Part shown: positions 1 through 64,000 of the stretch, piece by piece | How positions within the stretch are numbered: the stretch's first letter is position 1 | How the letters are laid out: each line of letters opens with the position of its first letter | From: Agromyces allii | Lineage (GTDB): Bacteria > Actinomycetota > Actinomycetes > Actinomycetales > Microbacteriaceae | Reading direction: 5' to 3' | DNA: 64,000 nucleotides | Assembly: GCF_009749385.1 (NCBI RefSeq) | Contig: NZ_WBIN01000014.1 | Location: 1-64,000 of the forward strand | Position numbers and translations under genes: made by a program | The notes under the pieces: generated by a model | The model's database searches: none | What the model was told of the DNA's origin: nothing | The model's input: only the letters and a program-made list of their open reading frames with translations

Positions 1-237
1 TTATTTGGCTAGAACCGCACCGACCGCCCGGCCCGAAGACCCGACCGCCGCGGCGACATGGATAAACATACGCAACCCCACCCCCACCACACAAATCCCA
101 CCAACACCCCGGGCGTGTCGCAACGCCCTGGACAGGCCGCTCGACACGGTCTGCGCACCGGGATCCAGGCCGGCCACCGGCATCCGCCCGGCTCGGCGCG
201 GCATCGCGAAATCAGCGTTCATCTGCATCCACTCTTC

Positions 238-255
238 TGAGTGAGCGCTCATTCA
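238..255. promoter_or_regulatory. Probable TetR operator upstream of the tetR-ABC operon
   Basis: TGAGTGAGCGCTCATTCA is a nearly perfect 18-bp palindrome; the central ten bases TGAGCGCTCA are perfectly symmetric. It ends 14 bp before the start codon of the TetR-family gene at 270. This size, symmetry and position match the autoregulatory operators typical of TetR repressors. Repression of the downstream ABC exporter by the same regulator is inferred. Confidence 0.7.
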
Positions 256-269
256 GTTATGATCCCGTC

Positions 270-953
270 ATGGCAGAACGAGCACGACGGGCGAAACCCC
301 TGAGTCGCGACGAGCGAAGGGCGTCCATCATGGACGCGGCGATCCCGCTCCTCGTGCAGTACGGGCGCGACGTGACGAGTAAGCAGCTCGCCGAGGCGGC
401 CGGTGTCGCCGAGGGCACGCTGTACTCCGTGTTCGCCGACAAGGACGAGCTCGTGCACGACTCGATCCACCGGCACATCGAGGCCACGTCGATGGTCGAC
501 GCGATCCGCGAGATCCCGGCGTCCAGCGAACTCGACGACGTGATCCGCACGATCGTGGAGCTGACCCAGCACCGCACCGAGCAGATCTTCGCGCTCGTCG
601 CGATCCTGGGCTTCCACGAACGCACGCCCGATCAGGCGAAACGCCGCCCGCCCGACAACGAGCCCGTCATCCAGGCGATCACCGACATGCTGCTGCCGCA
701 TCGCGACCAGCTCACGGTGAGTCCTCGCCGGGCCGCCCAGTTCATCCGGTACGCCACCTTCTCGATGACGCATCCGATGATCACGAACGGCGACATCGTT
801 CCGGCCGAGGAGATCAGCGCACTGCTGTTGCACGGTTTCTCGGTCACCGCAGATGCCGCAACCACGACCGCCCCCGCCGACGGACGCCGCGACGCGGCAT
901 CCGTCTCGCCCACCTTCACCGCACCGCCCACCGCCGCACCCACCACTGCGTAG
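270..953 (+). CDS. TetR/AcrR-family transcriptional regulator
   Basis: 227 aa. Residues about 15-62 form a TetR-type helix-turn-helix (an alpha-helical start, then SKQLAEAAGVAEGTLYSVF as recognition helix). The middle is the usual all-helical ligand domain, and the last 30 residues are an Ala/Pro/Thr-rich tail unlike the family core. ATG at 270 follows a clear palindromic operator. The gene is followed after 11 bp by two ABC exporter genes on the same strand, so it probably represses them and is relieved by a substrate of the pump. The ligand cannot be told from sequence. Confidence 0.9.
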   Translation: MAERARRAKPLSRDERRASIMDAAIPLLVQYGRDVTSKQLAEAAGVAEGTLYSVFADKDELVHDSIHRHIEATSMVDAIREIPASSELDDVIRTIVELTQHRTEQIFALVAILGFHERTPDQAKRRPPDNEPVIQAITDMLLPHRDQLTVSPRRAAQFIRYATFSMTHPMITNGDIVPAEEISALLLHGFSVTADAATTTAPADGRRDAASVSPTFTAPPTAAPTTA

Positions 954-964
954 AAAGCCGCACC

Positions 965-2701
965 ATGCTCATCTCCCTGCTGAAGCGCTACGTCAAGCCG
1001 TACTCGTGGCTCGTCGTCGGCGTCATCGTCTTCCAACTGGCGCAATCGATGGCCTCGCTCTACCTGCCGACGCTGAACGCCGACATCATCGACCAGGGCG
1101 TCGCCACCGGCGACACCGAGTACATCCTCACGACGGGCGGCTGGATGCTGCTCATCACGCTCGCGCAGGTCGCGTGCTCGATCACGGCGGTCTACTTCGG
1201 CGCGAAGGTCGCGATGGCCGTGGGCCGCGACCTCCGCCGCGGAGTGTTCCGCAAGGTCGGCGAGTTCTCGGAGCGCGAGGTCTCGAAGTTCGGCGCCCCG
1301 TCGCTCATCACCCGCACGACGAACGACGTCCAGCAGGTGCAGATGCTCGTGCTGATGACCTCGACGATGCTCGTCTCGGCCCCGATCCTCGCCATCGGCG
1401 GCGTGATCATGGCCATGCAGCAGGACCTCGAGCTGTCGTGGCTCATCGCGATCAGCGTGCCCGTGCTGCTCATCGCGGTCGGGCTCATCGTCACCCGCAT
1501 GGTGCCGCTGTTCCGCGTCATGCAGAAGAAGATCGACCGGGTCAACCTCGTGCTGCGCGAGCAGCTGACCGGCATCCGCGTCATCCGCGCGTTCGTGCGC
1601 GAGCCGGAGGAGCGCGATCGATTCGAGGTCGCCAACGCCGAGATCACGGATGTCGCGACGCGCGCCGGCCGCCTCATGGCCCTGATGTTCCCGGTGGTCA
1701 TGGCCGTGCTGAACGTCTCGAGCGTCGCCGTTCTCTGGTTCGGCGCGTTCCGCATCGAGGACGGCAGCATGCAGGTCGGAACGCTCATGGCGTTCCTTCA
1801 GTACCTGATGCAGATCCTCATGGCGGTCATGATGGCGACCTTCATGGCCGTCATGATCCCGCGCGCCTCGGTCAGCGCCGACCGCATCGGCGAGGTGCTC
1901 GACACGAGCTCGAGCGTCGTGCCGCCGCTCGAGCCGACGACCGTGGTGAGCATGCACGGCGCCATCGAGCTCGACGACGTGAGCTTCGCCTACCCCGGCG
2001 CCGAGTCCCCCGTGCTGCGCAACCTCACGTTCCTGACCGAGCCCGGCACCACCACCGCGGTGATCGGCAGCACCGGTGCCGGCAAGACCACGCTCGTCAA
2101 CCTGCTGCCGCGCCTGTTCGACGCGACCGAGGGGAGCGTGCGCATCGACGGCGTCGATGTGCGCGACCTCGAGCCCGACGCGCTCTGGGAGCGCATCGGA
2201 CTCGTGCCGCAGAAGCCATACCTGTTCTCGGGCACGGTCGCCTCCAACCTGCGCTACGGAAAGCCGGATGCCACCGACGACGAGCTCTGGCACGCACTCG
2301 AGGTCGCGCAGGCACGCGCCTTCGTGTCGGCCATGCCGGGCGGTCTCGAGGCCCCCATCGCCCAGGGCGGCACCAACGTCTCGGGTGGTCAACGCCAACG
2401 ACTGGCGATCGCGAGAGCGCTCGTGAAACGCCCGGAGATCTACGTGTTCGACGACTCGTTCTCGGCGCTCGACGTCGCGACCGACGGGCGCCTCCGCCGC
2501 GCCCTTCGCGCCGACATCGGCGACGCCTCGATGTTCGTGGTCGCCCAGAGGGTCTCGAGCATCGTCGACGCCGACCAGATCCTCGTGCTCGAGCACGGCG
2601 AGATCGTGGCCCGCGGCACCCACGAGGAGCTGCTCGCGAACTCGCCCACCTACGAGGAGATCGTCTCCAGCCAGCTCAGCGCCGAGGAGGCCGCAGCATG
2701 A
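965..2701 (+). CDS. ABC exporter half-transporter, subunit with degenerate ATPase site
   Basis: 578 aa: six-helix exporter membrane domain (about 1-320) followed by a nucleotide-binding domain. Walker A is GSTGAGKTT near residue 370 and the signature is canonical (VSGGQRQRL). After Walker B the catalytic Glu is replaced by Asp (YVFDDSFSALD), and the switch His is replaced by Gln (VAQRVSSI). These are the changes seen in the non-catalytic site of heterodimeric exporters such as TM287/288 and BmrCD. The stop overlaps the next gene's start (ATGA), so the two halves are translationally coupled and very probably form one heterodimeric multidrug-type pump. Substrate unknown. Confidence 0.9.
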   Translation: MLISLLKRYVKPYSWLVVGVIVFQLAQSMASLYLPTLNADIIDQGVATGDTEYILTTGGWMLLITLAQVACSITAVYFGAKVAMAVGRDLRRGVFRKVGEFSEREVSKFGAPSLITRTTNDVQQVQMLVLMTSTMLVSAPILAIGGVIMAMQQDLELSWLIAISVPVLLIAVGLIVTRMVPLFRVMQKKIDRVNLVLREQLTGIRVIRAFVREPEERDRFEVANAEITDVATRAGRLMALMFPVVMAVLNVSSVAVLWFGAFRIEDGSMQVGTLMAFLQYLMQILMAVMMATFMAVMIPRASVSADRIGEVLDTSSSVVPPLEPTTVVSMHGAIELDDVSFAYPGAESPVLRNLTFLTEPGTTTAVIGSTGAGKTTLVNLLPRLFDATEGSVRIDGVDVRDLEPDALWERIGLVPQKPYLFSGTVASNLRYGKPDATDDELWHALEVAQARAFVSAMPGGLEAPIAQGGTNVSGGQRQRLAIARALVKRPEIYVFDDSFSALDVATDGRLRRALRADIGDASMFVVAQRVSSIVDADQILVLEHGEIVARGTHEELLANSPTYEEIVSSQLSAEEAAA

Positions 2702-4770
2702 CCACCGAGCAGCGCAACGACGCCCAGCCCGACACGGGCTCGATCAGCGCGGCCACCCAGGCCGAGATCGCCTCCGAGGCCGAGGCCGCCCCCGCGCCCG
2801 CCGCGCCTCCCCGCCGCGGCGGCGGTCCGTTCGGCGGCGGCATGCAGGCGCCCGTGCAGAAGGCCATCGACTTCTGGCCCTCGGCCAAGCGGCTCATCGG
2901 CCGGCTGCGACCCGAGGCGTGGCCCGTCATCTCCGTGACGGTGCTCGCCATCATCGGCGTCGTGTTCAGCGTGCTCGGGCCGAAGCTCCTCGGCGAGGGC
3001 ACGAACATCATCTTCGAGGGCGTCGTCTCGTCGGCGCTCGGCGAGCAGCTGCCGGCCGGCACCACGCAGGCGCAGGCCATCGAGATGCTGCGCGCCGCAG
3101 GCCAGGACGACATCGCCAACATGGTCTCGGCCATGAACGACTTCCAGGTCGGTCAGGGCATCGACTTCCAGGCGCTCGGCATGGTGCTCATGGGCGTGCT
3201 CGCGCTCTACCTGCTCGCCTCGCTGTTCATGTGGCTGCAGGGCTGGGTGCTGAACGGCGCGATCCAGCGCACGGTGTTCCGCCTGCGCGAGGACGTCGAG
3301 GAGAAGATCAACCGCCTGCCGCTGAAGTACTTCGACGGCCTGCAGCGCGGCGAGGTGCTCTCGCGGGTCACCAACGACATGGACAACGTGTCGCAGAGCC
3401 TGCAGCAGACCATGAGCCAGATGCTCACCTCGCTGCTCACCGTGGTCGGCGTGCTCGTCATGATGTTCACGATCTCGCCGCTGCTCGCGCTCGTCGCGCT
3501 CGTGACCATTCCGCTCTCGGCCGTCATCACGGTCGTGATCGCGAAGCGGTCGCAGAAGATGTTCGCCGCGCAGTGGAAGCACACCGGCGCGCTCAACGCC
3601 CGCATCGAGGAGACCTTCACGGGCCACGCGCTCGTGAAGGTGTTCGGCCGCCAGAAGGAGGTCGACGAGGCCTTCGACGCCAAGAACGACGAGCTGTTCA
3701 CCGCGAGCTTCGGCGCCCAGTTCGTCTCGGGCATCATCATGCCCGCGATGATGTTCGTCGGGAACCTCGTCTACGTCGCGATCGCGGTCGTCGGCGGGCT
3801 CATGGTCGCCGGCGGCACCATGCGCCTCGGCGACGTGCAGGCGTTCATCCAGTACTCGCGCCAGTTCACGCAGCCGCTCAGCCAGCTCGGCTCCATGGCC
3901 AACCTGCTGCAGTCCGGCGTTGCGAGCGCCGAGCGCATCTTCGAACTACTCGACGCCGAGGAGCAGGACCCCGACCCCGAGACGCCCGCGTCACCGGCAT
4001 CCGTCGCCGAGGGCGGCGAAGCCGGTGCACGCCTGGCGTTCGAGGACGTCTCGTTCAGCTACTCGCCCGACAAGCCGCTCATCGAGCACATGAACCTCGT
4101 CGCCGAGCCCGGCTCGACCGTCGCGATCGTCGGCCCGACGGGCGCCGGCAAGACGACGCTCGTGAACCTCATCATGCGGTTCTACGACGTCGACTCGGGC
4201 CGCATCACCTACAACGGCGTCGACATCAACGACATGACCCGCGACGACCTGCGCTCGCGCACGGGCATGGTGCTGCAGGACACCTGGCTGTTCGGCGGCA
4301 CCATCCGCGAGAACATCGCCTACGGGCGACCGGATGCCACGGAGGAGGAGATCCTCGCCGCGGCCGTCGCCGCCTACGTCGACCGGTTCGTGCACGCGCT
4401 GCCCGACGGGTACGACACCGTGCTCGACGACGAGGCCGGCAACCTCTCGGCCGGAGAGAAGCAGCTCATCACCATCGCCCGGGCGTTCCTCGCCCGACCG
4501 AACGTGCTGATCCTCGACGAGGCGACGAGCTCGGTCGACACGCGCACCGAGGTGCTCGTGCAGAAGGCCATGGCCGCGCTCCGCGAGAACCGCACGAGCT
4601 TCGTCATCGCGCACCGGCTCTCGACGATCCGCGACGCCGACGTGATCCTCGTCATGGAGAACGGCTCGATCGTCGAGCAGGGCTCGCACACGCAACTGCT
4701 CGCCGCGAAGGGCGCGTACTACCGCCTCTACAACGCGCAGTTCGAGGCGCCGGTCGACGAACAGGTCTGA
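2698..4770 (+). CDS. ABC exporter half-transporter, catalytic partner subunit
   Basis: 690 aa. An Ala/Pro/Gly-rich cytosolic N-terminus (about 1-65) precedes the six-helix exporter domain, which has an unusually long loop after the first helix (about residues 95-165). The C-terminal NBD has Walker A GPTGAGKTT, intact Walker B with catalytic Glu (LILDEATSSVD) and switch His (IAHRLSTI). The signature motif, however, is LSAGEKQ rather than LSGGQ. In a heterodimer this altered signature faces the degenerate Walker site of the partner, so one composite site is dead and the other intact. ATG at 2698 overlaps the previous stop by 4 nt. A strong terminator follows. Confidence 0.9.
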   Translation: MTTEQRNDAQPDTGSISAATQAEIASEAEAAPAPAAPPRRGGGPFGGGMQAPVQKAIDFWPSAKRLIGRLRPEAWPVISVTVLAIIGVVFSVLGPKLLGEGTNIIFEGVVSSALGEQLPAGTTQAQAIEMLRAAGQDDIANMVSAMNDFQVGQGIDFQALGMVLMGVLALYLLASLFMWLQGWVLNGAIQRTVFRLREDVEEKINRLPLKYFDGLQRGEVLSRVTNDMDNVSQSLQQTMSQMLTSLLTVVGVLVMMFTISPLLALVALVTIPLSAVITVVIAKRSQKMFAAQWKHTGALNARIEETFTGHALVKVFGRQKEVDEAFDAKNDELFTASFGAQFVSGIIMPAMMFVGNLVYVAIAVVGGLMVAGGTMRLGDVQAFIQYSRQFTQPLSQLGSMANLLQSGVASAERIFELLDAEEQDPDPETPASPASVAEGGEAGARLAFEDVSFSYSPDKPLIEHMNLVAEPGSTVAIVGPTGAGKTTLVNLIMRFYDVDSGRITYNGVDINDMTRDDLRSRTGMVLQDTWLFGGTIRENIAYGRPDATEEEILAAAVAAYVDRFVHALPDGYDTVLDDEAGNLSAGEKQLITIARAFLARPNVLILDEATSSVDTRTEVLVQKAMAALRENRTSFVIAHRLSTIRDADVILVMENGSIVEQGSHTQLLAAKGAYYRLYNAQFEAPVDEQV

Positions 4771-4818: not shown

Positions 4819-4841
4819 CGCATTCGGGCGGATGCCGCGGG

Positions 4842-7800
4842 TCAGGTCCCCGGCCGCGGCTCGGTCGAGTCGGGGCCGGCGTCGTCGGGGCCGGCGTCGT
4901 CGGGGCCGGCGTCGTCGGGGCCGGCGTCGTCGGGGCCGGCGTCGTCGGGGCGGGCGGCGCTGGAATCGGTCGGCGCACTCGGTTCGCCGGTCAGACGCTC
5001 CACTCCTCGGCCGGCCGAGTCGGACGCGCCGGGCTCGCTCGGCGCCTGCCGGACGCCGTCGGCGTCGGCCGCGACCGCGGGCGCTCCGGCGGGTACCAGG
5101 GCCGGCTCCGCGACCGTCTCGGCCGCCTCGGCACGCGCCGCGCGCTTGGCCGCGCGACGTTCGCGTCCGCCCTCGACGAGGTTGCAGAGCACGGGCAGCA
5201 CCACGAGCGTGAGCACGGTCGACGAGAGCAGGCCGCCGATCACGACGATCGCGAGCGGCTGCGAGATGAAGCCGCCGTGGCCCGTGACGCCGAGCGCCAT
5301 CGGCACGAGCGCGAAGATCGTCGCGAGCGCCGTCATGAGGATCGGGCGCAGACGGCGCGAGGCGCCGTGCACGAGCGCATCGCGCACGCTCATGCCGCGA
5401 TCCCGATACTGGTTCACGAGGTCGACGAGCACGATCGCGTTCGTCACCACGATGCCGACGAGCATGAGCACGCCGATGAGCGACGGCACGCCGAGCGGCA
5501 CGCCCGTGATGACCTGCAGCGCGATCGCACCGGTGGCCGCGAACGGCACCGAGACGAGGAGCAGCAGCGGCTGCAGCAGCGAGCGGAACGTCGCGACCAT
5601 GACGATGTAGACGATCAGGATCGCCGCGAGCAGCGCGAGGCCGAGCTGCGAGAACGACTCGGCCTGGTCGGCCGACACCCCGCCGATCTCGGCCGAGGTG
5701 CCCGCGGGCAGGTCGGCCTCGGCGAGCGCGACCTGCACGTCGGCATTCGCTGTCGTGAGGTCGTCGCCTGCCGGCGTGGCCGTCACGGTCGCGCTGCGGA
5801 GGCCCTGCACGGTCGTGATCGAGGTCGGGCCGTCGACCGTCTCGACCGTGGCGAGCTCGTCGAGGCGCACGACGCCGGTCGCGGTCGGGACCTCGAGGGC
5901 CCGGAGCTCCTCGATGGTCGTCGGCGGGTTCTCGTCGGCGACGTAGATCGTGAGGGTCTGCTCGTCGATGACGACCGAGCCCTTGGCCTGGGGCGACATC
6001 TTGGAGGACACGAAGCCGCCGAGGGCGACCTCGGTGAACCCGGCCTCGGCCGCGGCATCCCGATCGATCTCGATGGCGATGTACTCGCGCGACTCGGCGA
6101 GGTTCGACGAGACCTGCGTGAGCGAGTCGAAGCCCTCGAACTCGGCGACCATGGCGTCGGTCGCCGACTGGAGGTCTTCCGCGTTCGACGCCGTGATGTT
6201 GACCGCGATGTCGTTCGAGGCGCCGAAGCCGCTCGACGCCGTGAGCGTGACCTCGCCGACGTCGGAGAGCCCGTCGAGGGCCTCGCGCACCTCGGCCTGG
6301 AGCGCCTCCTGGTCGGCGTCTTCATCGGTCGTGATCGAGTACGTGACGGTCGCGCCGCCGCTGCCGAAGATCGCCGCGAGGTCCTGCCCGCTCGACCCGA
6401 TCGAGGTCTCGACGGTCTCGACCCCCTCGGTGTCGCGGATCGCGTCTTCGACCGGCTTAGACGCCTCGTCCATGGCGTCGAGGCTCGAGCCGACCGGCAG
6501 CTCCTGCGTGACCTGGAACGTGTTCTGGCCCGAGGACCCGAGGAAGTTCGTCTTCATGAGCGGCACCATCGCGATCGTGCCGCCGAGCACGAGCACCGCG
6601 AGCAGCAGCGTCACGACGCTGTGCTTGAGGGTCCACGCGATGATCGGCAGGTACCCGCGCTGGAGACGCGACGGGTGCTCGAGCTCGTCGGGGGCACCGG
6701 CGCCGGCCTCGTCGACGAAGGCGGCGGCCGCGGCATCCGTTCCGGAATCACCGGCGTGGGCGTGCACCTTGGCCGGCTTCAGGAACCAGTACGCGAGCAC
6801 GGGCACGATCGTGAGCGAGACGAGCAGCGAGGCGAGCAGCGCGATCGTGACCGTGAGCGAGAACGGTCGGAAGAGTTCGCCGGTGACGCCCTCGACGAGC
6901 GCGATCGGGAGGAACACCGCGACCGTGGTGATGGTCGACGCCGTGATGGCGCCGGCGACCTCGCGCACCGCGCGCACGATCGTGGCCGACTTGTCGACCC
7001 CCGCGACGAGATGCCGCTTGATGTTCTCGATGACGACGATGGAGTCGTCGACGACGCGACCGATGGCGATCGTCAGGGCGCCGAGCGTCAGGATGTTGAG
7101 CGTGTACCCAGTGGCCTGCAGTCCGATGAACGTGATGAGCACCGACGTCGGGATCGAGATCGCCGTCACGAGGGTCGCGCGCACCGACATCAGGAACAGC
7201 AGGATGATGATGACCGCGAACGCGAGGCCGAGCAGGCCCTCGGTCGCGAGCGATTCGATGGACTGCTGGATGTACGGCGCCTGATCGAACACGACCGTGA
7301 ACTCGGCCCCCGGGTTGGTCGTGTCGAGCGCGGCCTGCAGGTCGGGCAGCATCGCGTTGACCGCCGTCGACACCTCGACCGTGTTGGCCGCGGGGAGCTT
7401 CGTGACCGCGATCGTGAGCGCGGGCTCGCCGTTCACGCGCGAGATGCTCGTGACCGGGCTCTCTTCGAGCTCGACGGATGCCACGTCGCCGATGGTGATC
7501 GCCACGGGCACGGCGAGGGTGGTCGGCGCCGTGACCGCCCCCGGGATGCCCGTCGCGACGCCGTCGGGGATCGCTCCCGCATCGGGCGCCGCCTGCGTCT
7601 CGGTCGCACCCAGCACGGGGAGCGCGGCGAGCTCGTCGACGCTCGCGATGCGGTCGCCGGTCTGCACGGCGTAGGTCGTGTCGCCCTCGGTGATCGAGCC
7701 GGCGGGGATCAGCACGCCGTTCTGCGCGAGCGCGTCGCCGATGGCCTGCGAGGTGAGGCCGTAGGTCGCGAGCTTCTCGACGTCGGGCACGATCGTGACG

Positions 7801-8345: not shown

Positions 8346-8460
8346 GGGGTCAATCCTCGCAGGGTCGGCGCACCGATTCGGTCACGGATGCCTGTGAAGA
8401 ACGGGCCGTCGTGCACCCGATCCGGCGCGTGCCTCTAGCCCTGTTCGAGGGACAGCCGAT

Positions 8461-15103: not shown

Positions 15104-15156
15104 GGGGTGCTCCTTCTGTTGCGGGCGGATGCCGCGGCATCCGGAAGTCCTCGTAT

Positions 15157-15195: not shown

Positions 15196-15232
15196 TTGCC
15201 GCGAATTGCAAGGAACGACGGATGCCGCGGGC

Positions 15233-33950: not shown

Positions 33951-33952
33951 AG

Positions 33953-50626: not shown

Positions 50627-50667
50627 CCGTTCGCCTCCGTTCTGTTCGCATGTCGGGTCGTCGTTGG

Positions 50668-50710: not shown

Positions 50711-50865
50711 CCGGCAGCGGCATCGGCGACCGAACCTGCGACGATCCGGATCGCGGATGCCGGTGCGCCGCCGTTCGCCCCTCGGCGCGGCGCCCGTGCG
50801 GCGCGCACGCCCGCGGCCGGTAGAATCGAGGCAAACCACCCCTCGACACCGGACGGAGAACCGCG

Positions 50866-52012: not shown

Positions 52013-52399
52013 ATGACCGCCACGTACCCCACGCCGCGCGCCGACGGAGCGGCGGCACCGACCGGTGCGACACCGGCATCCGCTCCCGCGATCGGTGCGA
52101 CGCCGGCAGCGAAGACCCCGTGGTACCGCCGCGTGTGGGTGCTCGTCTCGGGCGGCGTGCTGCTGGTGCTGCTCTCGTTCACGGGCGGGTTCGCCGCCGG
52201 ATCGGCGAGCTCGCTGCTGAACGGCATGCTCGGGGTGCCGTCGGGCGGCGACTTCCAGGGCGGACCCGGCCAGTTCCCCGGCGGCGACGGCGAGATGCCC
52301 GAACCTCCGAACGGCGGCGGCCCGTGGCAGGGCGGGCAGCCCGGCGACCAGGGCACGCAGGGCGACGACACGGGAACCTCCGACGGCACCAACTCCTGA
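52013..52399 (+). CDS. Small single-pass membrane protein, Gly/Pro-rich exterior
   Basis: 128 aa. An Ala/Pro/Thr-rich N-terminus, then WYRRVWVLVSGGVLLVLLSF, a membrane helix near 38-62, then a disordered Gly/Gln/Pro-rich tail (GGDFQGGPGQFPGGDGEMPE). GGAGG lies upstream of ATG. Similar low-complexity proteins are common and poorly conserved in Microbacteriaceae. Function unknown. Confidence 0.65.
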   Translation: MTATYPTPRADGAAAPTGATPASAPAIGATPAAKTPWYRRVWVLVSGGVLLVLLSFTGGFAAGSASSLLNGMLGVPSGGDFQGGPGQFPGGDGEMPEPPNGGGPWQGGQPGDQGTQGDDTGTSDGTNS

Positions 52400-52491
52400 C
52401 CTCGACGGATGCGGCCGACCGCGGCATCCGCCCTTCCCTCGATCGTTTCGATGACGGATGATGGCTGCACCCGTTGATCGAAGGAGATCCG

Positions 52492-55769: not shown

Positions 55770-55862
55770 CGGTCAAGGGTACGCGTTCAATCAATCGTTC
55801 GGCTGAGGCATCCGCCCAGGCCCTGATGACACGATGGAAGGACCCCCACCCGAGGAGCCCCC

Positions 55863-56429: not shown

Positions 56430-57629
56430 CTACCGGCCGGCGCGGTTGACGAGCGCCGTCCAGACGAGCGCCGTCGTGGCGCACGCGAACAGCACCACGA
56501 GCACCCACGGCAGCGCGGCGAGGCCGATGATGCCGTAGAGCGCCGCGCCGAGCAGGGCTCCACCGCCGATGCCCGTGTTGAACGCGGTCGTGTAGAAGGA
56601 TGCCGCAGCGTCGCGGATCTTCGCCGAGGCAGAGTGCAGCAGCCGCGTGTTGAGCATCGTCGGCAGCGCGCCGAACGCGGTGCCGAACAGCAGGAACGCG
56701 GCGATCGAGACGCCCGGCACCTCGGGGAACGCCGCGAGCCCGGCCGCGCCCAGGGCCGTCGCGACCATCGCGACGACGAGCCCGATGGTCGGACGCCGCC
56801 CGAGGACCGCGCCCGCGAGCACGAGGCCGACCGCGCCGGCGATGCCGTAGGCGAGCAGCATGGGGCTGATCGCGCTGGACGGCAGGCCCATGACATCCGT
56901 CATGTACGGCGCGATGTACGTGTAGAAGCTGTACATGCCGATCATCGCGGTCGCGGTGATGACGCAGACGACGATCACCGGCAGGAACGTCGGGTCCTTG
57001 CGCACCCGAACGGGCGCGGCATCCGCCTCACCGGCGTGGTGCCGGACGGCCGGCAGGAACCGCCACACGAGCAGGGCGCCGAGCAGCGTGAGCGCGCCCA
57101 TCGCGGCGAACGCGACGCGCCAGCCGAGCGCCTGGCCCAGCGCGGTGCCGAGCGGCACGCCGAGCACGAATGCAGCCGATCCGCCGGCGACCGAGATCGA
57201 CACGGCGCGGGCGAGCTGCTCCTTCGGCACGAGGTGGCCGGCGTACGCGCCGACGACCGACCAGAACACGCCGTGCGCCGCACCGCCGATCACGCGCGTC
57301 ACGAGCACCGTCGGGTAGTTCGGAGCGATCGAGGTCAGCACGCAGCTGAGCGCGAGCACGGCGAGCGTGATCACGATGAGCCGGCGGCGCCCGACGCGCT
57401 TCGTGAGCGCCGCGAGCGGCACGGTCAGCACGACGACCGTCGCGGCGAACACCGTGACGAGCAGGCCGATGAGCGGCTCCGGAACGTCGAGCTCGCGGCT
57501 CATGTCGGGCAGCAGGCCCGTGGGGAGCATCTCGATCGTGACCGAGAGGAAGACGGCCGAGGCGAGCACGATGAGCCCGAGCCACGGGAACGGCGGCGCG
57601 GGATGCACCGTAGGAATCGAAGAGGTCAT
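56430..57629 (-). CDS. MFS transporter, DHA1 family (AraJ/Bcr-like)
   Basis: 399 aa, twelve membrane helices. DHA1 features: VFLSVTIEMLPTGLLPDMS near 28, PLAALTKRVGRRRLIVITL near 75 (motif A), and LGVPLGTALGQALGWRVAF near 155 (motif C). Of the drug/sugar efflux type (YdhP, AraJ). The ATG at 57629 has no strong ribosome site; no regulator gene is adjacent. Divergent from purL. Substrate unknown. Confidence 0.88.
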   Translation of the reverse strand: MTSSIPTVHPAPPFPWLGLIVLASAVFLSVTIEMLPTGLLPDMSRELDVPEPLIGLLVTVFAATVVVLTVPLAALTKRVGRRRLIVITLAVLALSCVLTSIAPNYPTVLVTRVIGGAAHGVFWSVVGAYAGHLVPKEQLARAVSISVAGGSAAFVLGVPLGTALGQALGWRVAFAAMGALTLLGALLVWRFLPAVRHHAGEADAAPVRVRKDPTFLPVIVVCVITATAMIGMYSFYTYIAPYMTDVMGLPSSAISPMLLAYGIAGAVGLVLAGAVLGRRPTIGLVVAMVATALGAAGLAAFPEVPGVSIAAFLLFGTAFGALPTMLNTRLLHSASAKIRDAAASFYTTAFNTGIGGGALLGAALYGIIGLAALPWVLVVLFACATTALVWTALVNRAGR

Positions 57630-57760: not shown

Positions 57761-57812
57761 CGAGCGGATGCCGAGGGCGGGCCGAGAGGGCCGTGCACGC
57801 GGCATCCGCTCG
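57761..57812. other. Long inverted repeat built from the CGGATGCC word
   Basis: CGAGCGGATGCCG (57761-57773) is exactly complementary to 57800-57812, loop 26 nt, in the 278-bp gap between the MFS and purL starts, 27 bp before the likely purL -10 box TAGACT (57839-57844). It could be a protein site or a cruciform. The rest of the gap shows nothing else clear beyond a small GAGCGA/TCGCTC repeat near 57640. Confidence 0.6.
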
Positions 57813-57907
57813 CCGTTCTCGGGGTATGCGCGGGCAAGTAGACTGAGCGGGTCAGGCATTCGCCCCGCGGCATCCGCATCGCCGCCGTCTTCTGGAGCTC
57901 GCCACTC

Positions 57908-60241
57908 GTGACCATCAACACCCCAGCAAACATCGCCGCCCCGACGACTGCGGTGCTCGACACCGTCGACGTCGCCGCCGCCACTCCCGAGAAGGAGCAG
58001 CCGTACGCCGCGCTGGGCCTGAAGCCCGACGAGTACGAGCGCATCCGCAACATCCTCGGCCGGCGCCCGACGAGCGCCGAGCTCGCGATGTACTCGGTCA
58101 TGTGGAGCGAGCACTGCTCCTACAAGTCCTCGAAGGTGTACCTGCGCCAGTTCGGCAAGAAGGTCACGCCCGACATGAAGAAGCACCTCATGGTCGGCAT
58201 GGGCGAGAACGCCGGCGTGCTCGACATCGGCGAGGGCTGGGCCGTCACGTTCAAGATCGAGTCGCACAACCACCCCTCCTACATCGAGCCGTTCCAGGGC
58301 GCCGCGACCGGCGTCGGCGGCATCGTGCGCGACATCATCTCGATGGGCGCCCGCCCGGTGGCCGTCATGGACGCCCTGCGGTTCGGCGCCATCGACCACC
58401 CCGACACCGCGCGCGTCGTGCACGGCGTCGTCTCGGGCATCAGCTTCTACGGCAACTGCCTCGGCCTGCCGAACATCGGCGGCGAGACCTGGTTCGACTC
58501 GGTCTACCAGGCCAACCCGCTCGTGAACGCCCTCGCCGTGGGCGTGCTGCGCCACGAAGACCTGCACCTGGCCAACGCCAAGGGCGCGGGCAACAAGGTC
58601 GTGCTCTTCGGCGCCCGCACGGGCGGCGACGGCATCGGCGGCGCCTCGATCCTCGCGTCCGACACGTTCGCCGAGGGCGGCCCGACCAAGCGCCCCGCGG
58701 TGCAGGTCGGCGACCCGTTCGCCGAGAAGGTGCTCATCGAGTGCTGCCTCGAGCTCTTCCAGGGCGACCTCGTCGAGGGCATCCAAGACCTCGGCGCCGC
58801 CGGCATCTCGTGCGCGACCTCCGAGCTCGCCTCGAACGGCGACGGCGGCATGGCGATCGTGCTCGACGACGTGCTGCTGCGCGACCCCACGCTCACGCCC
58901 GAAGAGATCCTGATGAGCGAGAGCCAGGAACGCATGATGGCGATCGTCAAGCCCGAGAAGCTCGAGGGCTTCCTCGAGGTCGTCAAGAAGTGGGACGTCG
59001 AGACCAGCGTGCTCGGCGAGGTCACCGACACCGGCCGCCTCAGCATCATGTGGCACGGCCAGGAGATCGTGAACGTCGACCCGCGCACCGTCGCCGTCGA
59101 CGGCCCGGTCTACGAGCGCCCCGTCGCGTACCCCACCTGGATCGACGCGCTGCAGGCCGACACGGCCGCCAAGCTCGACCGTCCGGCGACGCCCGACGAG
59201 ATCCGCGAGCAGTTCCTGAAGCTCGTCGGCTCGGCCAACCAGGCCGACGCCGCGTGGGTCACGAACCAGTACGACTCCTACGTGCTCGGCAACACGGCGC
59301 TCGGCGCCCCCGACGACGCCGGCATGATCCGCGTCGACGAGGAGTCGGGGCTCGGCGTCTCGGTCGCGACCGACGCCAACGGCCGCTACTCGTACCTCGA
59401 CCCGCGTCAGGGCGCGAAGCTCGCGCTGGCCGAGGCGTTCCGCAACGTCGCCGTCACGGGCGCCAAGCCCATGGGCGTCAGCGACTGCCTGAACTTCGGC
59501 TCCCCCGAGAACCCCGAGGTCATGTGGCAGTTCTCCGAGACCGTCGAGGGCCTCTCCGACGGATGCCTCGAGCTCGGCATTCCCGTCACCGGCGGCAACG
59601 TCTCGTTCTACAACCAGACCGGTGACGTGCCGATCCACCCGACGCCGGTCATCGCCGTGCTCGGCGTGATCGACGACGTCGCGCGCCGCATCCCCAGCGG
59701 ATGGCAGGACGACGGCCACAACATCTACCTCCTCGGCGACACCGCGCTCGAGCTCGACGGCTCCGCGTGGGCCGGCACCGTGCACGGCCACCTCGGCGGA
59801 CGCCCGCCGGCCGTGTCGCTCGAGGGCGAGAAGACGCTCGCCGAGCTGCTCGCCGCAGCGGCGCTCGAGGGTCTCATCGACTCGGCGCACGACCTCAGCG
59901 ACGGCGGCCTCGCGATCGCCCTCGCCGAGGCGGTGTCGCGCTTCGGCGTCGGCGCTCGCGTGTTCCTCGGCGAGGTCACGGCCGACGCCGGCATCGACCT
60001 CGCGACCGCGCTCTTCTCGGAGTCGGCGGGCCGCGTCATCGTCACGGTGCCCCGTGAAGACGACGTGAAGTTCCGCGGCCTCTGCGACGGCCGGGGCTAC
60101 CCCGTGCGCCGCATCGGCGTGACCGACGCCGCGTCGGGCGCCCTCGAGGTGCAGGACGCCTTCACCGTGTCGATCGACGAGCTGCGGGGTGTCAACCGCG
60201 CCCCGCTCGCCGACGCGTTCGGCCCCATCGTCGGATACTGA
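57908..60241 (+). CDS. purL: Phosphoribosylformylglycinamidine synthase subunit PurL
   Basis: 777 aa, the small (PurS/PurQ-dependent) form. [16 protein letters not shown] near 62, [21 protein letters not shown] near 115, [15 protein letters not shown] near 240, [17 protein letters not shown] near 300, and [13 protein letters not shown] near 560 are the family blocks for ATP and FGAR binding. Start is GTG at 57908, with TAGACT about 64 nt upstream, so this mRNA has a leader. It is 6 kb from purSQ. Confidence 0.97.
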
Positions 60242-60251: not shown

Positions 60252-61241
60252 ATGACCACCGGCCGTGGGCGGCAGGCGTACTCCGACGAGTACGCGGCCG
60301 CCCACGGCCGTTTCAGCCTGATCCCGGCGGGGTACGTCTTCCTGCTCGACGGGTCGCGCGTGCTGCTGCAGCTGCGCTCGGGCACCGGCTACTACGACGG
60401 GTGGTGGGGCGCCTCGGCCGCCGGCCACGTCGATGCGGGCGAGTCGGTCGTGCACGGCACGGTTCGCGAGGCGGCCGAGGAGATCGGCGTCGCCGTCGAG
60501 CCCGCCGATCTCGTGCCGCTCACCACCATGCACCGCACCGGCCCGACCTCGGCGACCGTCGAGCAGCGCGTCGACTTCTTCTTCGCCTGCCGCTCGTGGA
60601 GCGGCGAGCCCCGACTGCTCGAGACCACCGCATCCGACCTGCGCTGGTTCGACCTCGCCGACCTGCCCGAGCGCGTCGTGCACCACGAGCGGTTCGTGCT
60701 CGAGCAACTGCGCGACGGAACGCTCGCGCCGATCACGGCATTCGGGTTCGACCCGGGCAGCGCCCGCGACGCGGCATCCGACGCGGGATCCGTCGCCGGC
60801 ATCCGAGCGGATGCCGCGCACGACGGCATCTCCTACGGCACCGCGACCCGCGACGACATCCCCGGGCTGATCGCGTTCTGGCAGGTCGCCGGCGAGAACG
60901 ACGGCCGCCCGATCGACACCCCCGACGCCGTGGCCCGCCAGCTCGAACGCGACCCCGACGCACTCATCGTCGCGCGGGCCGAGGGACGCATCGTCGGCAC
61001 CGTGATCGCCGGCTACGACGGTTGGCGCGCGCACCTGTACCGGCTCGCCGTGCTGCCGTCGCACCGACGACGCGGCATCGCGCGCGAGCTCATGCGGCGC
61101 GCGGAGGCGCGCCTCGCGGCGTTCGGCGTGAGCCGGATCGACGCCATGGTGCTCGAGTACAACGACCTCGGGCAGTCGCTCTGGTCCTCGCTCGGCTACA
61201 CCCAGCAGTCCGACTGGCGGCGATGGGTGCGGGGCGTCTGA
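60252..61241 (+). CDS. NUDIX hydrolase-GNAT acetyltransferase fusion protein
   Basis: 329 aa. Residues about 1-160 are a NUDIX domain with the complete box GHVDAGESVVHGTVREAAEE (then IGV), able to hydrolyse nucleoside diphosphate-linked substrates. A linker (about 165-195) made of Ala, Asp and Gly leads to a GNAT domain with RLAVLPSHRRRGIARELMRR near 265 for acetyl-CoA. The linker DNA holds three copies of the CGGATGCC word. The fusion suggests sequential modification of a metabolite, but neither substrate is known. It lies 10 bp after purL. Confidence 0.85.
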   Translation: MTTGRGRQAYSDEYAAAHGRFSLIPAGYVFLLDGSRVLLQLRSGTGYYDGWWGASAAGHVDAGESVVHGTVREAAEEIGVAVEPADLVPLTTMHRTGPTSATVEQRVDFFFACRSWSGEPRLLETTASDLRWFDLADLPERVVHHERFVLEQLRDGTLAPITAFGFDPGSARDAASDAGSVAGIRADAAHDGISYGTATRDDIPGLIAFWQVAGENDGRPIDTPDAVARQLERDPDALIVARAEGRIVGTVIAGYDGWRAHLYRLAVLPSHRRRGIARELMRRAEARLAAFGVSRIDAMVLEYNDLGQSLWSSLGYTQQSDWRRWVRGV

Positions 61242-61522: not shown

Positions 61523-61583
61523 CCGCGAGTGGGCGAAGTTGGCGGCATCCGCACGCCAAGGTTCGCCGACAGCCCACTCGCGG
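61523..61583. other. Intergenic inverted repeat between convergent genes
   Basis: CCGCGAGTGGGC (61523-61534) pairs perfectly with 61572-61583. Inside, CGAAGTTGGCG (61534-61544) pairs with 61554-61565 with a bulge. The loop holds GGCATCCG. Probably a bidirectional terminator, but longer than most and without a T-run. Confidence 0.65.
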
Positions 61584-61597: not shown

Positions 61598-62116
61598 TCA
61601 GGCGCCCGCAGGCGGGTGCGCGAGCAGCTCGACGCGTTCGGCGAGGTACCGCGCGAGCGGCGCGAGGGCGTCGGGCGAGGTCGGGTTCCAGCGCACGAAC
61701 ACCTCGTCGTCGCGCACGACGAGCGGGCCGGAGGCCGCGTCGCGGGCGAGCACGTCGAAGTCGACCGGGCTCGCATCGAAGGCGACGGTCTCGCCCTCCG
61801 GGATGCCGCCCTTCACCGCGGCCGCGCGGAGCGCACGCTGCTCGGCCACCGACTCCGACGTGATGCTCTTGCGGGCAGCACGCTCGGCGCGCACCACGCG
61901 CCCGGTGTCCCAGAGGTTGCCGTGCTCATCGACGAGCAGCACGCCGAGCCGCCAGACCCGCCCGACGGGCGTCATGCGCGCGGCGCGGGGGATGCCGAGC
62001 ACGCGTCGTTCGGGCACGAGTTCGGCGAGCGTCTCCTGCCGCGCTCCGGCGGTCCGCAGCAGCTCTGCGGCGTCGGCCACGAGCGTGCGCGCCTGCGCGA
62101 CCGCGGCATCCGTCAT
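61598..62116 (-). CDS. Conserved actinobacterial protein of unknown function
   Basis: 172 aa, no membrane segment. Mixed alpha/beta; VGRVWRLGVLLVDEHGNLWDTG near 50 and AEQRALRAAAVKGGIPEGETVAFD near 95 are its most conserved-looking parts, ending with a helix. I do not recognise a function; similar proteins have been labelled glutaminase in databases, as I recall, without a visible glutaminase motif here. Its ATG overlaps the stop of the upstream 139-aa gene (ATGA). Confidence 0.7.
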   Translation of the reverse strand: MTDAAVAQARTLVADAAELLRTAGARQETLAELVPERRVLGIPRAARMTPVGRVWRLGVLLVDEHGNLWDTGRVVRAERAARKSITSESVAEQRALRAAAVKGGIPEGETVAFDASPVDFDVLARDAASGPLVVRDDEVFVRWNPTSPDALAPLARYLAERVELLAHPPAGA

Positions 62117-62532
62117 CGGGACCTGCCGACGAGCTCGCGGACGGCCAGTCCGTACGCCTCGGCCACCTCTGGGTGCTCGAACCGCAGTCGTTCGCCGCCG
62201 AGTTCGATCTCGACCTCGAACGCGTCGTCGAGGCGGGTGAGCGAGCGGAACGTCGCGCGCAGCAGCTCGCGAAGCTGGTCTTCGCGGGGCAGCCACACGG
62301 CGTCGACGAGCGCGACGGAGTCGAGCGCCCACTCGGTCGTGCCGTTGAACGCGAGCACCGTGCCGGTCGGATGCCGGCGCGCCTCGATCGTCATCTCGCT
62401 CACCGTGAAGACGTCGGCCTCGGCCTCGGCCTCGACATCGCTCGGCAGGTCGAGCTGGAACCGGTCGCCCGAGAGCGGGTGCCACACGAGTCCGGCTTCG
62501 CGGAGGGCGAGGGCGAGCTCTCGGCTGATCAT
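62113..62532 (-). CDS. Conserved actinobacterial protein of unknown function (partner gene)
   Basis: 139 aa. ATG at 62532 has GGAG 2-5 nt upstream. Alpha/beta: SRELALALREAGLVWHPLSG at the N-terminus and WLPREDQLRELLRATFRSL near 80. Overlaps the 172-aa gene by 4 nt, so the two products may act together. Function unknown. Confidence 0.7.
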   Translation of the reverse strand: MISRELALALREAGLVWHPLSGDRFQLDLPSDVEAEAEADVFTVSEMTIEARRHPTGTVLAFNGTTEWALDSVALVDAVWLPREDQLRELLRATFRSLTRLDDAFEVEIELGGERLRFEHPEVAEAYGLAVRELVGRSR

Positions 62533-62590
62533 GTCTCCATCGTGCCCCGAACCGGGCACCGCGTCACGCAACCGGCCTGCGATCGGTGAG

Positions 62591-62657
62591 GCTCCCGCCG
62601 GGTCCGGGGTTCGGGGTCATCCCCCAATGTTCCCTCGAACCGGTCCCCGGCGGGAGC
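62591..62657. terminator. Long imperfect hairpin between alcohol dehydrogenase and the next unit
   Basis: GCTCCCGCCGG (62591-62601) pairs with 62647-62657, and GGTTCG near 62608 pairs with CGAACC near 62636. On the minus strand it lies just past the dehydrogenase stop, so it is best read as that gene's terminator. It lacks a T-run. Confidence 0.55.
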
Positions 62658-62659
62658 AG

Positions 62660-63820
62660 CTAGGGGGCGGCCCGCCGCCCGGGGGCGACGCCGACCCTGA
62701 TGTGTCGACCCGACGCGGCCTCGTCGAGCGCGTGGTCGAGCTTGGCGAGCGCGTGGGTCGACCCGACGAGCTCGTCGAGCGGCAGCGTGCGCCAGGCCCG
62801 TTCGAGGAAGGCGACCGCGTGCTCGAGGTGGCGGGCGTCGTAGTTGTGCACACCCGTGATGCTCGCGAGCCGCCGCACGAGCGACTCGGGGTCGATGCAG
62901 AGTTCGCTGCCGCTCGTGACGCTGCCGACGAGCACGACGACGCCGCCGACGCCCACCTTGGCGACCGCGGTGCGGACACCGGCGGCGGCCCCCGAGGCTT
63001 CGATCGCGACGAGCACCTCACGCGTGTCGGTGCCGATCGCGGCGGCCAGCACGGACTCGAGCCGCTCCGATCCGTCGGCCCGGGCGCGCGGGTCGGCGCT
63101 CAGGGCGCCGAGTCGACGCGCGAACGCCCGCCGCGAGGCATCCGGCTCGGAGACGATCACGGTCGCGCCGGCCTCGAGCGCGAGGGCCGCGGCGGTGAGC
63201 CCGATCATGCCGCCGCCGGTGATGAGCACGAGGGCGCCGTCGAGATCCACACGGGCGGATGCCGCGGCCAGCGCCGCGACCGCGGTCGCCGTCGCGCACG
63301 AGGCGGGCGCCGCCACCACCGCGGGCAGCTCCTCGGAGATGCGCACGATCGACGTGCCGGCGCGGAGCTGCACGTGCGTGGCGAATCCGCCGGAGAGCTC
63401 CCACCCTCGGTGCACGCGCTCATGGCCGTACTTGGCGAGCGTGCGGCACTTCTGCGTGAGTCCGCGGCGGCACCGGTCGCAGGTGCCGCAGCTCACGGTG
63501 ACCGACCAGACCACGCGGTCGCCGAGTTCGAGGGGCGTCCCGTCGCTGCGCACGGCTCCGGCGCCGAGCGCGATGACGCGGCCGACCTGCTCGTGTCCGA
63601 GCACGAGCGGCGACCTGGCCGGACGGTGCCCGAGCACGGTGTGGATGTCGGATCCGCAGATCGTGGCGAGCTCGACCTCGACGAGCGCCTCGCCGTCGCA
63701 GAGGTGCACACCGGGCACGGCGAGGGCGTCCTGCGGGCGCCCCGGCTCGTTCCAGACCATGGCGACGGGCGAGGGCTTCACGATCACGTCGTGCTCGCTC
63801 CGGCGGTCGACAGTGTGCAT
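62660..63820 (-). CDS. Zinc-dependent alcohol dehydrogenase, HpnZ-like (phosphonate-associated type)
   Basis: 386 aa from ATG at 63820. MDR family: catalytic zinc site ATICGSDIHTV near 52 and LGHEQVGRV, structural zinc cluster SCGTCDRCRRGLTQKC near 110, then YGHERVHRGWELSGGFATHV near 130, and the NAD-binding ITGGGMIGLTAAALALEAG near 205. The GDRVVWSV and CATATAVAAL segments resemble TIGR03366 (alcohol dehydrogenases found with phosphonate catabolism). No phosphonate genes are nearby. The true substrate is not known. The 180 bp upstream to the window end show no further gene. Confidence 0.82.
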   Translation of the reverse strand: MHTVDRRSEHDVIVKPSPVAMVWNEPGRPQDALAVPGVHLCDGEALVEVELATICGSDIHTVLGHRPARSPLVLGHEQVGRVIALGAGAVRSDGTPLELGDRVVWSVTVSCGTCDRCRRGLTQKCRTLAKYGHERVHRGWELSGGFATHVQLRAGTSIVRISEELPAVVAAPASCATATAVAALAAASARVDLDGALVLITGGGMIGLTAAALALEAGATVIVSEPDASRRAFARRLGALSADPRARADGSERLESVLAAAIGTDTREVLVAIEASGAAAGVRTAVAKVGVGGVVVLVGSVTSGSELCIDPESLVRRLASITGVHNYDARHLEHAVAFLERAWRTLPLDELVGSTHALAKLDHALDEAASGRHIRVGVAPGRRAAP

Positions 63821-64000
63821 CGCGGCTGCCCGCCTCGCTCTCCTGGGCCGAGCGCCCGGTGCGAGCGCGTGCTGTGCGTTCCGGATTCCCACCGTAGGCA
63901 GCCGCCGCCAACGGCATCCGTCGGCATGGTTACCGGCAGGTGAATGAGCTGGGGCCGCTGGGGTTCGTGCGCTCCCGCGCAGACCACGTGCAGATCGTGC

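What the first reader, a model, noticed from the sequence alone, without database searches (positions are those of the whole stretch)
1..64000. Octamer CGGATGCC is about 14-fold over-represented and ignores gene boundaries and reading frame
By hand count there are about 75 copies on the two strands; about five are expected for 70% GC random DNA (my estimate). They fall in many genes in several frames and in intergenic DNA, and they require GAT, GCA and TCC codons that are rare nearby, so protein sequence and codon bias do not explain them. Some pair into perfect palindromes (15126-15143, 42795-42812) or hairpins. Candidates: a recombination hotspot (Chi-like), uptake or segregation signal, nucleoid-protein site, or footprint of a GGATG-type methyltransferase. 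I know no described function in this group.
Basis: seen in the sequence. Interest (0 to 1): 0.72.

Follow-up and report, generated by a model that had tools for sequence, protein, structure and literature searches.

The report
Genome-wide DNA self-tag in Microbacteriaceae
A short DNA word, CGGATGCC, is repeated about once per thousand bases throughout this soil bacterium and many of its relatives, overrides normal codon choice, and is replaced by similar 'dialect' words in sister lineages, much like the self-recognition tags that some unrelated bacteria use when taking up DNA.

Summary
Confirmed, and larger than claimed. CGGATGCC occurs 76 times in the window (shuffles: 6.6) and 4,113 times in the 4.36-Mb genome (reversed word: 230). 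The organism is an Agromyces. All 37 genomes of the genus in one search are enriched 6- to 23-fold; 23 genomes of 19 other families show 1.0 to 2.4-fold. Selection acts on DNA: in the motif context 92% of Asp codons are GAT (12% overall). Copies show no strand bias, are denser between genes, and are at background in a low-GC island and four Microbacterium phages. Here the word extends to CGGATGCCGCGG (159 seen, 1.2 expected). Sister lineages use GGAGGCGCGG, AGGATCCG, CGGAGTCG or CGGATGCTG; a genome of another family uses GTATGCCG. Such dialects resemble those of Neisseriaceae DNA uptake sequences.

Best reading: a self-DNA signal kept by biased uptake and recombination (ComEC plus Tad-type pilus). 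The reader protein is unidentified, and pilus presence matches motif presence only loosely. Main rival: a Chi-like site for AdnAB (RecC in 0 of 50 genomes). Methylase footprint, strand-guided signal and mutational bias are disfavoured. New variant of a known kind; no experiment yet.

The parts
1..64000 (.). 76 copies of octamer CGGATGCC (32 on +, 44 on -), mean spacing about 850 bases, gap CV 1.0
179..186 (-). CGGATGCC (not wholly in a gene)
896..903 (-). CGGATGCC
1571..1578 (-). CGGATGCC
2265..2272 (+). CGGATGCC
3996..4003 (-). CGGATGCC
4331..4338 (+). CGGATGCC
4829..4836 (+). CGGATGCC (not wholly in a gene)
6732..6739 (-). CGGATGCC
7475..7482 (+). CGGATGCC
8385..8392 (+). CGGATGCC (not wholly in a gene)
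9901..9908 (+). CGGATGCC
10069..10076 (+). CGGATGCC
10414..10421 (+). CGGATGCC
10588..10595 (+). CGGATGCC
11219..11226 (-). CGGATGCC
13282..13289 (+). CGGATGCC
14215..14222 (+). CGGATGCC
14267..14274 (-). CGGATGCC
15126..15143 (.). perfect 18-bp palindrome CGGATGCCGCGGCATCCG: two overlapping extended motifs (15126-15133 +, 15136-15143 -), in a gap between divergent genes
15219..15226 (+). CGGATGCC (not wholly in a gene)
15264..15271 (-). CGGATGCC (not wholly in a gene)
17042..17049 (+). CGGATGCC
17496..17503 (-). CGGATGCC (not wholly in a gene)
18705..18712 (-). CGGATGCC
21677..21684 (-). CGGATGCC
21952..21959 (+). CGGATGCC
24191..24198 (+). CGGATGCC
24244..24251 (-). CGGATGCC
26344..26351 (-). 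CGGATGCC
27168..27175 (-). CGGATGCC
28081..28088 (-). CGGATGCC (not wholly in a gene)
28630..28637 (-). CGGATGCC (not wholly in a gene)
33535..33542 (+). CGGATGCC
34210..34217 (-). CGGATGCC
35089..35096 (-). CGGATGCC
37400..37407 (-). CGGATGCC
38791..38798 (-). CGGATGCC
38973..38980 (+). CGGATGCC (not wholly in a gene)
39048..39055 (+). CGGATGCC (not wholly in a gene)
39147..39154 (+). CGGATGCC (not wholly in a gene)
39438..39445 (-). CGGATGCC
40177..40184 (-). CGGATGCC
40400..40417 (.). near-palindrome TGGATGCCGCGGCATCCG holding the - strand copy 40410-40417
42795..42812 (.). perfect 18-bp palindrome CGGATGCCGCGGCATCCG (42795-42802 +, 42805-42812 -), inside a gene
44701..44708 (-). CGGATGCC
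45120..45127 (+). CGGATGCC
45525..45532 (+). CGGATGCC (not wholly in a gene)
45938..45945 (-). CGGATGCC
46032..46039 (+). CGGATGCC
46364..46371 (-). CGGATGCC
47669..47676 (-). CGGATGCC
48005..48012 (+). CGGATGCC
48537..48544 (-). CGGATGCC
50622..50629 (-). CGGATGCC (not wholly in a gene)
50754..50761 (+). CGGATGCC (not wholly in a gene)
52075..52082 (-). CGGATGCC
52423..52430 (-). CGGATGCC (not wholly in a gene)
52823..52830 (+). CGGATGCC
53831..53838 (-). CGGATGCC
55807..55814 (-). CGGATGCC (not wholly in a gene)
57018..57025 (-). CGGATGCC
57765..57772 (+). CGGATGCC (not wholly in a gene)
57801..57808 (-). CGGATGCC (not wholly in a gene)
57869..57876 (-). CGGATGCC (not wholly in a gene)
59560..59567 (+). 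CGGATGCC
60773..60780 (-). CGGATGCC
60798..60805 (-). CGGATGCC
60808..60815 (+). CGGATGCC
61544..61551 (-). CGGATGCC (not wholly in a gene)
62105..62112 (-). CGGATGCC
62368..62375 (+). CGGATGCC
63137..63144 (-). CGGATGCC
63256..63263 (+). CGGATGCC
63913..63920 (-). CGGATGCC (not wholly in a gene)

Best explanation
CGGATGCC, extended here to R-CGGATGCC-G-CG-G, is the repeated self-tag of a sequence-specific DNA-exchange system, working like the DNA uptake sequences of Neisseriaceae and Pasteurellaceae. A surface or membrane DNA receptor of the competence machinery (Tad/Flp pilus, ComEA, ComEC) prefers fragments that carry the tag. Recombination of tagged fragments then spreads and keeps the tag across the chromosome, up to the limit set by coding. 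When the receptor changes, the tag drifts into a dialect. Shown: genome-wide enrichment, DNA-level selection over codon use, strict core with tolerated positions, no strand bias, background level in a recent-looking import and in phages, several dialects in one family.
For: Density about 1 per 1,060 bases; Neisseriaceae genomes are reported with 943 to 5,918 copies of their dialects (PMC3630211, section read). No strand bias. Codon override: GAT 140 of 153 in context against 0.121 overall; repeated in a second species, 81 of 92 against 0.143. Intergenic 1.55 per kb, genic 0.89. Low-GC island C1:110-160 kb holds 4 copies in 50 kb; four Microbacterium phages hold 23 in 172 kb against 16 expected. 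Dialects: GGAGGCGCGG 24 against 0.6 in Frigoribacterium loci and 36 against 0.9 in G094; AGGATCCG 14 against 0.8 in a Frondihabitans locus and 25 against 2.4 in G063; CGGAGTCG 95 against 17.7 in four Rathayibacter loci; within one genus CGGATGCTG, 1,071 against 106 reversed-word control in the whole genome G433; species differ at base 9 within Agromyces. A genome of another family has GTATGCCG, 11 in 20 kb and 7 in a separate 8 kb where 0.3 and 0.1 are expected. Substitution and one-base-insertion dialects and overlapping dyad pairs are reported for Neisseriaceae. ComEC in 50 of 50 genomes; a ComEA-like frame lies beside ComEC in the window's genome (by position and look, not searched). Micrococcus luteus, also an actinobacterium, needs comEC and its tad genes for transformation (PMC4322843, abstract and passages).
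Against: No receptor identified; no competence shown here. ComEC is equally present in genomes without any detected tag. The type IVa pilus marker PilM matches poorly: absent from tag-rich G004, G008, G116, G119, G164, G066, G078 and G111, present in tag-poor G075, G090, G092, G109, G127, G114 and G129. T2SSF is weak or absent in ten tag-rich species of genus g29; a T2SSE (TadA-like) ATPase was then found in the three of those tested, but not over the cut-off in tag-rich G376. Within genus g106, tag-poor G221 keeps as many pilus hits as tag-rich sisters. Inverted pairs do not mark terminators: of 29 convergent pairs within 60 bases, 2 lie between convergent genes, unlike DUS. Tag sites turn over: 26 of 55 aligned sites kept across nine Agromyces loci (0 of 8 in two of them together), only modestly above control words at 0.30 to 0.36. 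Eight sampled tag-poor genera showed no dialect.
Confidence: 0.45

Rival explanations
1. A Chi-type recombination hotspot: the AdnAB helicase-nuclease degrades DNA ends until it meets the octamer, then switches to recombination. The tag is selected wherever breaks occur, and its dialects follow AdnAB change.
For: The core is an octamer in most genera looked at, with weaker flanks outside Agromyces. RecC, the Chi reader of RecBCD, is absent in 50 of 50 genomes, while PDDEXK_1 hits are in 50 of 50, mostly as two long neighbouring frames as expected of AdnAB (G064 has one hit only); one such frame matches PDB chains 6ppj_A and 7sjr_A, which I recall as mycobacterial AdnA. Whether AdnAB answers to Chi is stated to be unknown (PMC4824097, passages read). 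Phages and a low-GC island are at background.
Against: No orientation bias along the chromosome, whereas known Chi sites are biased (recalled). Many dialects within one family, even within a genus, where Chi is conserved across larger groups (recalled). The PDDEXK_1 pair is also present in tag-free genomes. AdnA is not less conserved than ComEC between Agromyces species: G000 to G004 70% against 61%, to G005 58% against 52%, so no special sign of coevolution; the comparison around G433 (35 changes in 339 otherwise invariant columns, against 7 to 29 for tag-rich species) is confounded by descent.
Confidence: 0.25
2. Binding site of an unknown chromosome-organising or other DNA-binding protein (or an epigenetic mark) with no role in DNA exchange.
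For: Strict core with graded flanks looks like protein recognition; copies are on both strands throughout the sampled chromosome.
Against: Does not by itself explain rapid dialect change, or why thousands of sites are kept inside genes at the cost of codon preference. GGATG outside the tag is not enriched, against a 5-base methylase.
Confidence: 0.2
3. Neutral product of codon use, base composition or mutational bias.
For: High-order Markov models reproduce the count, but only because they include most of the word.
Against: Order-2 and order-3 models predict 53 and 62 where 465 are seen. Codons switch in the tag context. Neutral decay products are missing at most positions: substitutions at bases 2 to 6 and 8 of the 12-mer give 0 to 4 copies each against 159 intact, although some octamer variants (base 1, base 6 to A or T, base 7 to T) are raised 2.4- to 5.4-fold. 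The word is near background in 23 genomes of other families of the order.
Confidence: 0.04

Closest known systems
DNA uptake sequence (DUS) of Neisseriaceae, 10- to 12-mers with eight dialects (PMC3630211)
   Same: About 1 copy per kb, genic and intergenic copies with intergenic DNA more permissive, a conserved core with family dialects that differ by single substitutions or a one-base insertion, overlapping dyad pairs in some genomes, some family members without a detected tag.
   Different: Different sequence, Gram-positive family, no type IVa pilin receptor tracked with it, inverted pairs not at terminators, uptake not demonstrated.
Uptake signal sequence (USS) of Pasteurellaceae
   Same: Dense strand-neutral repeat with a strict core and looser flank (recalled).
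   Different: Unrelated sequence and phylum; its receptor is described as unknown, with a prediction (PMC12616744, search listing).
Chi sites of RecBCD and AddAB
   Same: Octamer core, not enriched in phages or in a recent-looking import.
   Different: No strand bias here, higher density (recalled figures), several dialects in one family, no RecC; response of AdnAB to Chi is unknown (PMC4824097, passages).
HIP1 of cyanobacteria (recalled)
   Same: Very abundant octamer through genes and gaps.
   Different: HIP1 is palindromic; this core is not, and it forms dialects.
Flp/Tad-pilus transformation of Micrococcus luteus (PMC4322843)
   Same: Comparable gene set: ComEC, a ComEA-like frame and Tad-type genes are found here too.
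   Different: That paper's text has 0 occurrences of 'uptake sequence' and 'uptake signal'.

Membership tests
DNA uptake sequence systems (DUS/USS) | Short word enriched at about 1 per kb through the genome | tested here: met
   4,113 copies in 4.36 Mb, control word 230
DNA uptake sequence systems (DUS/USS) | No strand or replichore bias | tested here: met
   81/79, 116/113, 32/44; 149/162 in 20 samples of a complete chromosome, correlation with GC skew 0.06 and gene strand -0.19, one sample 5/21
DNA uptake sequence systems (DUS/USS) | Selection at DNA level in genes, more copies where coding allows | tested here: met
DNA uptake sequence systems (DUS/USS) | Dialects among related species around a shared core | tested here: met
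   whole-genome counts only for CGGATGCC and CGGATGCTG, the rest from samples of 22 to 126 kb
DNA uptake sequence systems (DUS/USS) | Inverted pairs at transcription terminators | tested here: not met
   29 convergent pairs within 60 bases; 18 in genes, 2 between convergent genes
DNA uptake sequence systems (DUS/USS) | Competence machinery present | tested here: inconclusive
   ComEC 50 of 50; ComEA-like frame beside ComEC (not searched); T2SSE ATPase over the cut-off in 10 of 11 tested; DprA not tested
DNA uptake sequence systems (DUS/USS) | Presence of the tag follows the uptake machinery | tested here: inconclusive
   T2SSF 3 or more hits in 26 of 28 tag- or dialect-bearing against 12 of 22 others, Fisher 0.002; PilM over cut-off 19 of 28 against 7 of 22, Fisher 0.02; groups set by me after the counts, no correction for descent; exceptions both ways
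DNA uptake sequence systems (DUS/USS) | The tag raises uptake or transformation | not testable with these tools
   needs experiment
Chi sites | A RecBCD/AddAB-type enzyme that reads it | tested here: inconclusive
   RecC 0 of 50; PDDEXK_1 50 of 50, mostly as AdnAB-like pairs; reading of Chi by AdnAB unknown
Chi sites | Orientation bias relative to replication (recalled criterion) | tested here: not met
GGATG (FokI-type) methyltransferase footprint | GGATG itself enriched regardless of flanks | tested here: not met
   605 GGATG left after removing GGATGCC and GGATGTC; order-2 model 573 for the same remainder (702 - 94 - 35)
Strand-guided segregation signals (KOPS-like) | Strong strand skew toward the terminus (recalled criterion) | tested here: not met

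The most novel reading that the evidence does not exclude
The first DNA uptake sequence system in Gram-positive bacteria: a dialect-forming self-tag in Microbacteriaceae and at least one further family of the order, read by a Tad-pilus or ComEA-type receptor, that sets barriers to gene exchange between genera and even between species of one genus.
Probability: 0.45. Interest if true: 0.9.

Novelty: new variant of a known kind. Interest (0 to 1): 0.8.

Why it matters
Uptake sequences are, to my knowledge (recalled), described only in two Gram-negative families, and how they arise and switch dialect is debated. Either outcome (uptake tag or AdnAB Chi) answers an open question, and it would give a handle for genetics in this family.

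Tried and rejected
Rejected: composition or codon bias; GGATG methylase footprint; strand-guided signal; RecBCD Chi; DUS-like terminators.

Tried without clear result: type IVa pilus (PilM) as the matching machinery. Loss of all pili in genus g29 looked like an argument against uptake, but a T2SSE ATPase turned up in the three g29 genomes tested, so I withdrew that argument except for G376. AdnA divergence as a sign of coevolution: no more divergent than ComEC. Dialect search in other families of the order: of 20 stretches fetched, three were under 10 kb and were dropped; of the 17 analysed one, G053, has a clear word of its own (GTATGCCG, followed up); I had first overlooked it. The other 16 gave nothing as clear, but 15 to 20 kb each is little. 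No dialect was seen in samples of g36, g38, g53, g55, g67, g72, g77 and g90 (40 to 60 kb each), which does not prove there is none; Clavibacter (GGATCCGCG 10 against 1.6, one locus) and g95 (GGATGCGC 25 against 6.6) are weak candidates. Literature: the octamer as text gave 520 papers, 20 listed, none on this subject by title; searches gave none with all terms; (any two of six terms) gave 1,015, eight listed, none with an occurrence of 'uptake sequence'.
Full report
Observation. CGGATGCC occurs 76 times in the 64-kb window; shuffles that keep dinucleotides give 6.6 on average and never more than 15. Order-2 and order-3 Markov models give 7.3 and 9.4. In the whole genome of the window (G000, 4,360,803 bases, 23 contigs) there are 2,125 copies on one strand and 1,988 on the other; the same word read backwards gives 115 and 115.

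Organism and spread. The window's PurL is 92 to 94% identical to that of seven named Agromyces in the list of the best 80 of 594 hits, 88 to 89% to two more (A. seonyuensis, A. binzhouensis) and 84% or less to other genera, so this is an Agromyces (Microbacteriaceae). In one search, all 37 genomes of the genus (window genome included) exceed the reversed-word control 6- to 23-fold; three more (G335, G370, G446) do so 13- to 15-fold. The 23 genomes of 19 other families of the order show 1.0 to 2.4-fold. In 398 genomes of the family the word is strongly enriched in many genera (for example G116, 4,041 against 116) and at background in others (for example G110, 43 against 115). Named loci around purL agree: high in Agromyces, Microbacterium, Cryobacterium, Herbiconiux, Salinibacterium, Galbitalea, Glaciibacter and others, low in Curtobacterium, Rathayibacter, Frigoribacterium, Clavibacter, Plantibacter, Labedella and some Leifsonia.

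Anatomy. In 463 kb of this genome (window plus parts of two contigs) the word extends to R-CGGATGCC-G-CG-G; the 12-mer CGGATGCCGCGG is seen 159 times where 1.2 are expected. Excluding the island, each substitution at bases 2 to 6 and 8 of the 12-mer gives 0 to 4 copies, T at base 7 gives 19, and bases 9 to 12 are graded. At octamer level the raised variants are those of base 1, base 6 to A or T, and base 7 to T (2.4- to 5.4-fold). Decayed copies at the strict bases are thus missing, which speaks for active upkeep. In a sister species (G004) base 9 is A, C or T rather than G, while CG at 10-11 is kept. Outside Agromyces the octamer core is kept and the 3' extension fades.

DNA-level selection. 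Of 353 genic copies, 142 sit in frame xCG GAT GCC and 132 in the antisense frame GCG GCA TCC; 161 are sense and 192 antisense. In the first context 140 of 153 Asp codons are GAT, against 994 of 8,204 overall; in the second 132 of 167 Ala codons are GCA, against 6.7% overall. The first result repeats in G004: 81 of 92 against 14%. Protein sequence and codon habit cannot do this.

Distribution. 1.55 copies per kb between genes and 0.89 in genes; 8 copies at gene edges are in neither count (genes from a simple script, not a curated annotation). Strands are balanced in long stretches (81/79, 116/113, 32/44) and along a complete sister chromosome sampled 20 times (149/162; no correlation with GC skew or gene strand, though one sample is 5/21). 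Gaps are random (CV 1.0 to 1.05) in the window and C2; C1, with the island, has 1.87. The low-GC (0.63 to 0.65) stretch C1:110-160 kb has 4 copies in 50 kb, background for its composition (3 against 5.3 in 112.5-162.5 kb). Four Microbacterium phages have 23 copies in 172 kb, 16 expected; the density of the tag in their own host species was not measured. Convergent pairs two bases apart form an 18-bp palindrome 11 times in 412 kb, because the extension GCGG overlaps its own complement; of 29 close convergent pairs 18 are in genes and 2 between convergent genes, so they are not terminators.

Dialects. Lineages low in CGGATGCC often carry another word of similar make: Frigoribacterium and g57 GGAGGCGCGG (24 against 0.6, and 36 against 0.9), Frondihabitans and g26 AGGATCCG (14 against 0.8, and 25 against 2.4), four Rathayibacter loci CGGAGTCG (95 against 17.7). 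Weaker candidates are Clavibacter GGATCCGCG (10 against 1.6, one locus) and g95 GGATGCGC (25 against 6.6). By eye most line up as GGA, two or three bases, then CG or CGCG. These counts come from samples of 22 to 126 kb. In genus g106, where six of eight species are rich in CGGATGCC, G433 has instead CGGATGCTG genome-wide: 1,071 against 106, while its six tag-rich sisters have 189 to 514 and G221 has 48; G433 keeps 619 CGGATGCC against 168. Outside the family, one of 17 sampled genomes, G053, has GTATGCCG: 11 copies in 20 kb (0.3 expected) and 7 in 8 kb a megabase away (0.1 expected), on both strands, and all 18 TATGCC in these 28 kb are part of it. So the phenomenon is not confined to Microbacteriaceae. 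Dialects with substitutions and a one-base insertion are what is reported for the DNA uptake sequences of Neisseriaceae (PMC3630211; abstract and section 6 read), with overlapping dyad pairs in some genomes and family members without a tag.

Machinery. RecC is absent from 50 of 50 family genomes tested. ComEC is in 50 of 50. PDDEXK_1 hits are in 50 of 50, mostly as pairs of long neighbouring frames as in AdnAB. PilM of type IVa pili is in 27 of 50 (26 over the cut-off) and does not follow the tag closely. T2SSF counts are higher in tag- or dialect-bearing genomes (26 of 28 with three or more hits, against 12 of 22), but this is not corrected for descent and I set the groups after seeing the counts; the tag-rich genus g29 has 0 to 2 weak hits in ten of ten species searched. 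A T2SSE (TadA-like) ATPase is nevertheless over the cut-off in 10 of 11 genomes checked; the exception, G376, is tag-rich. Micrococcus luteus needs comEC and tad genes for transformation (PMC4322843, abstract and passages), so the tools for uptake are plausibly present. AdnA is no more divergent than ComEC.

Verdict. What it works like: a self-DNA tag of the uptake-sequence kind, probability about 0.45; a Chi-like site for AdnAB, 0.25; another protein's site, 0.2. Membership in the DUS/USS kind is not claimed: the functional test is missing and the terminator feature was not met. Either leading reading would, as far as the searches made here and my recall go, be new for this phylum or this enzyme class.

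Noticed in passing
G053:C1:1-20000 (L220) and C1:1000001-1008000 (L282): A genome of another family of the order carries its own octamer GTATGCCG, 18 copies in 28 kb on both strands, about 0.5 expected.
   Followed up: partly
G000 contig C1:110000-163000 (L094-L097): Low-GC genomic island (sulfatase-like, sugar transport and related genes by eye) almost without the tag; just beyond its right edge, C1:165506-165527, CGGATGCC occurs three times in tandem, overlapping by one base.
   Followed up: partly
G005 chromosome, e.g. C1:17200-17275, 544561-544636, 1147235-1147310: CGGATGCTG occurs as inverted pairs 67 bases apart at many places, which suggests a dispersed short repeat element.
   Followed up: no
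L124, L125, L139 (G110, genus g73): Dispersed hairpin-like repeat around GGAGCCTGGTACTGAGGAGCC (pieced together from overlapping words; AGGAGCCT 23 against 1.4 expected) in a genome depleted of CGGATGCC.
   Followed up: no
L036, L042, L067 (Agreia): Repeated words around GACAGGCTCAGGGAACG; GCTCAGGGAA 12 copies in 64 kb.
   Followed up: no
G000:C12:221085-225199 and C19:261731-266028: PDDEXK_1 hits suggest two AdnAB-type pairs in the window's genome; the AdnA search found only the first.
   Followed up: partly
L147:40945-43272: Microbacterium phage Min1 carries an annotated purL gene.
   Followed up: no
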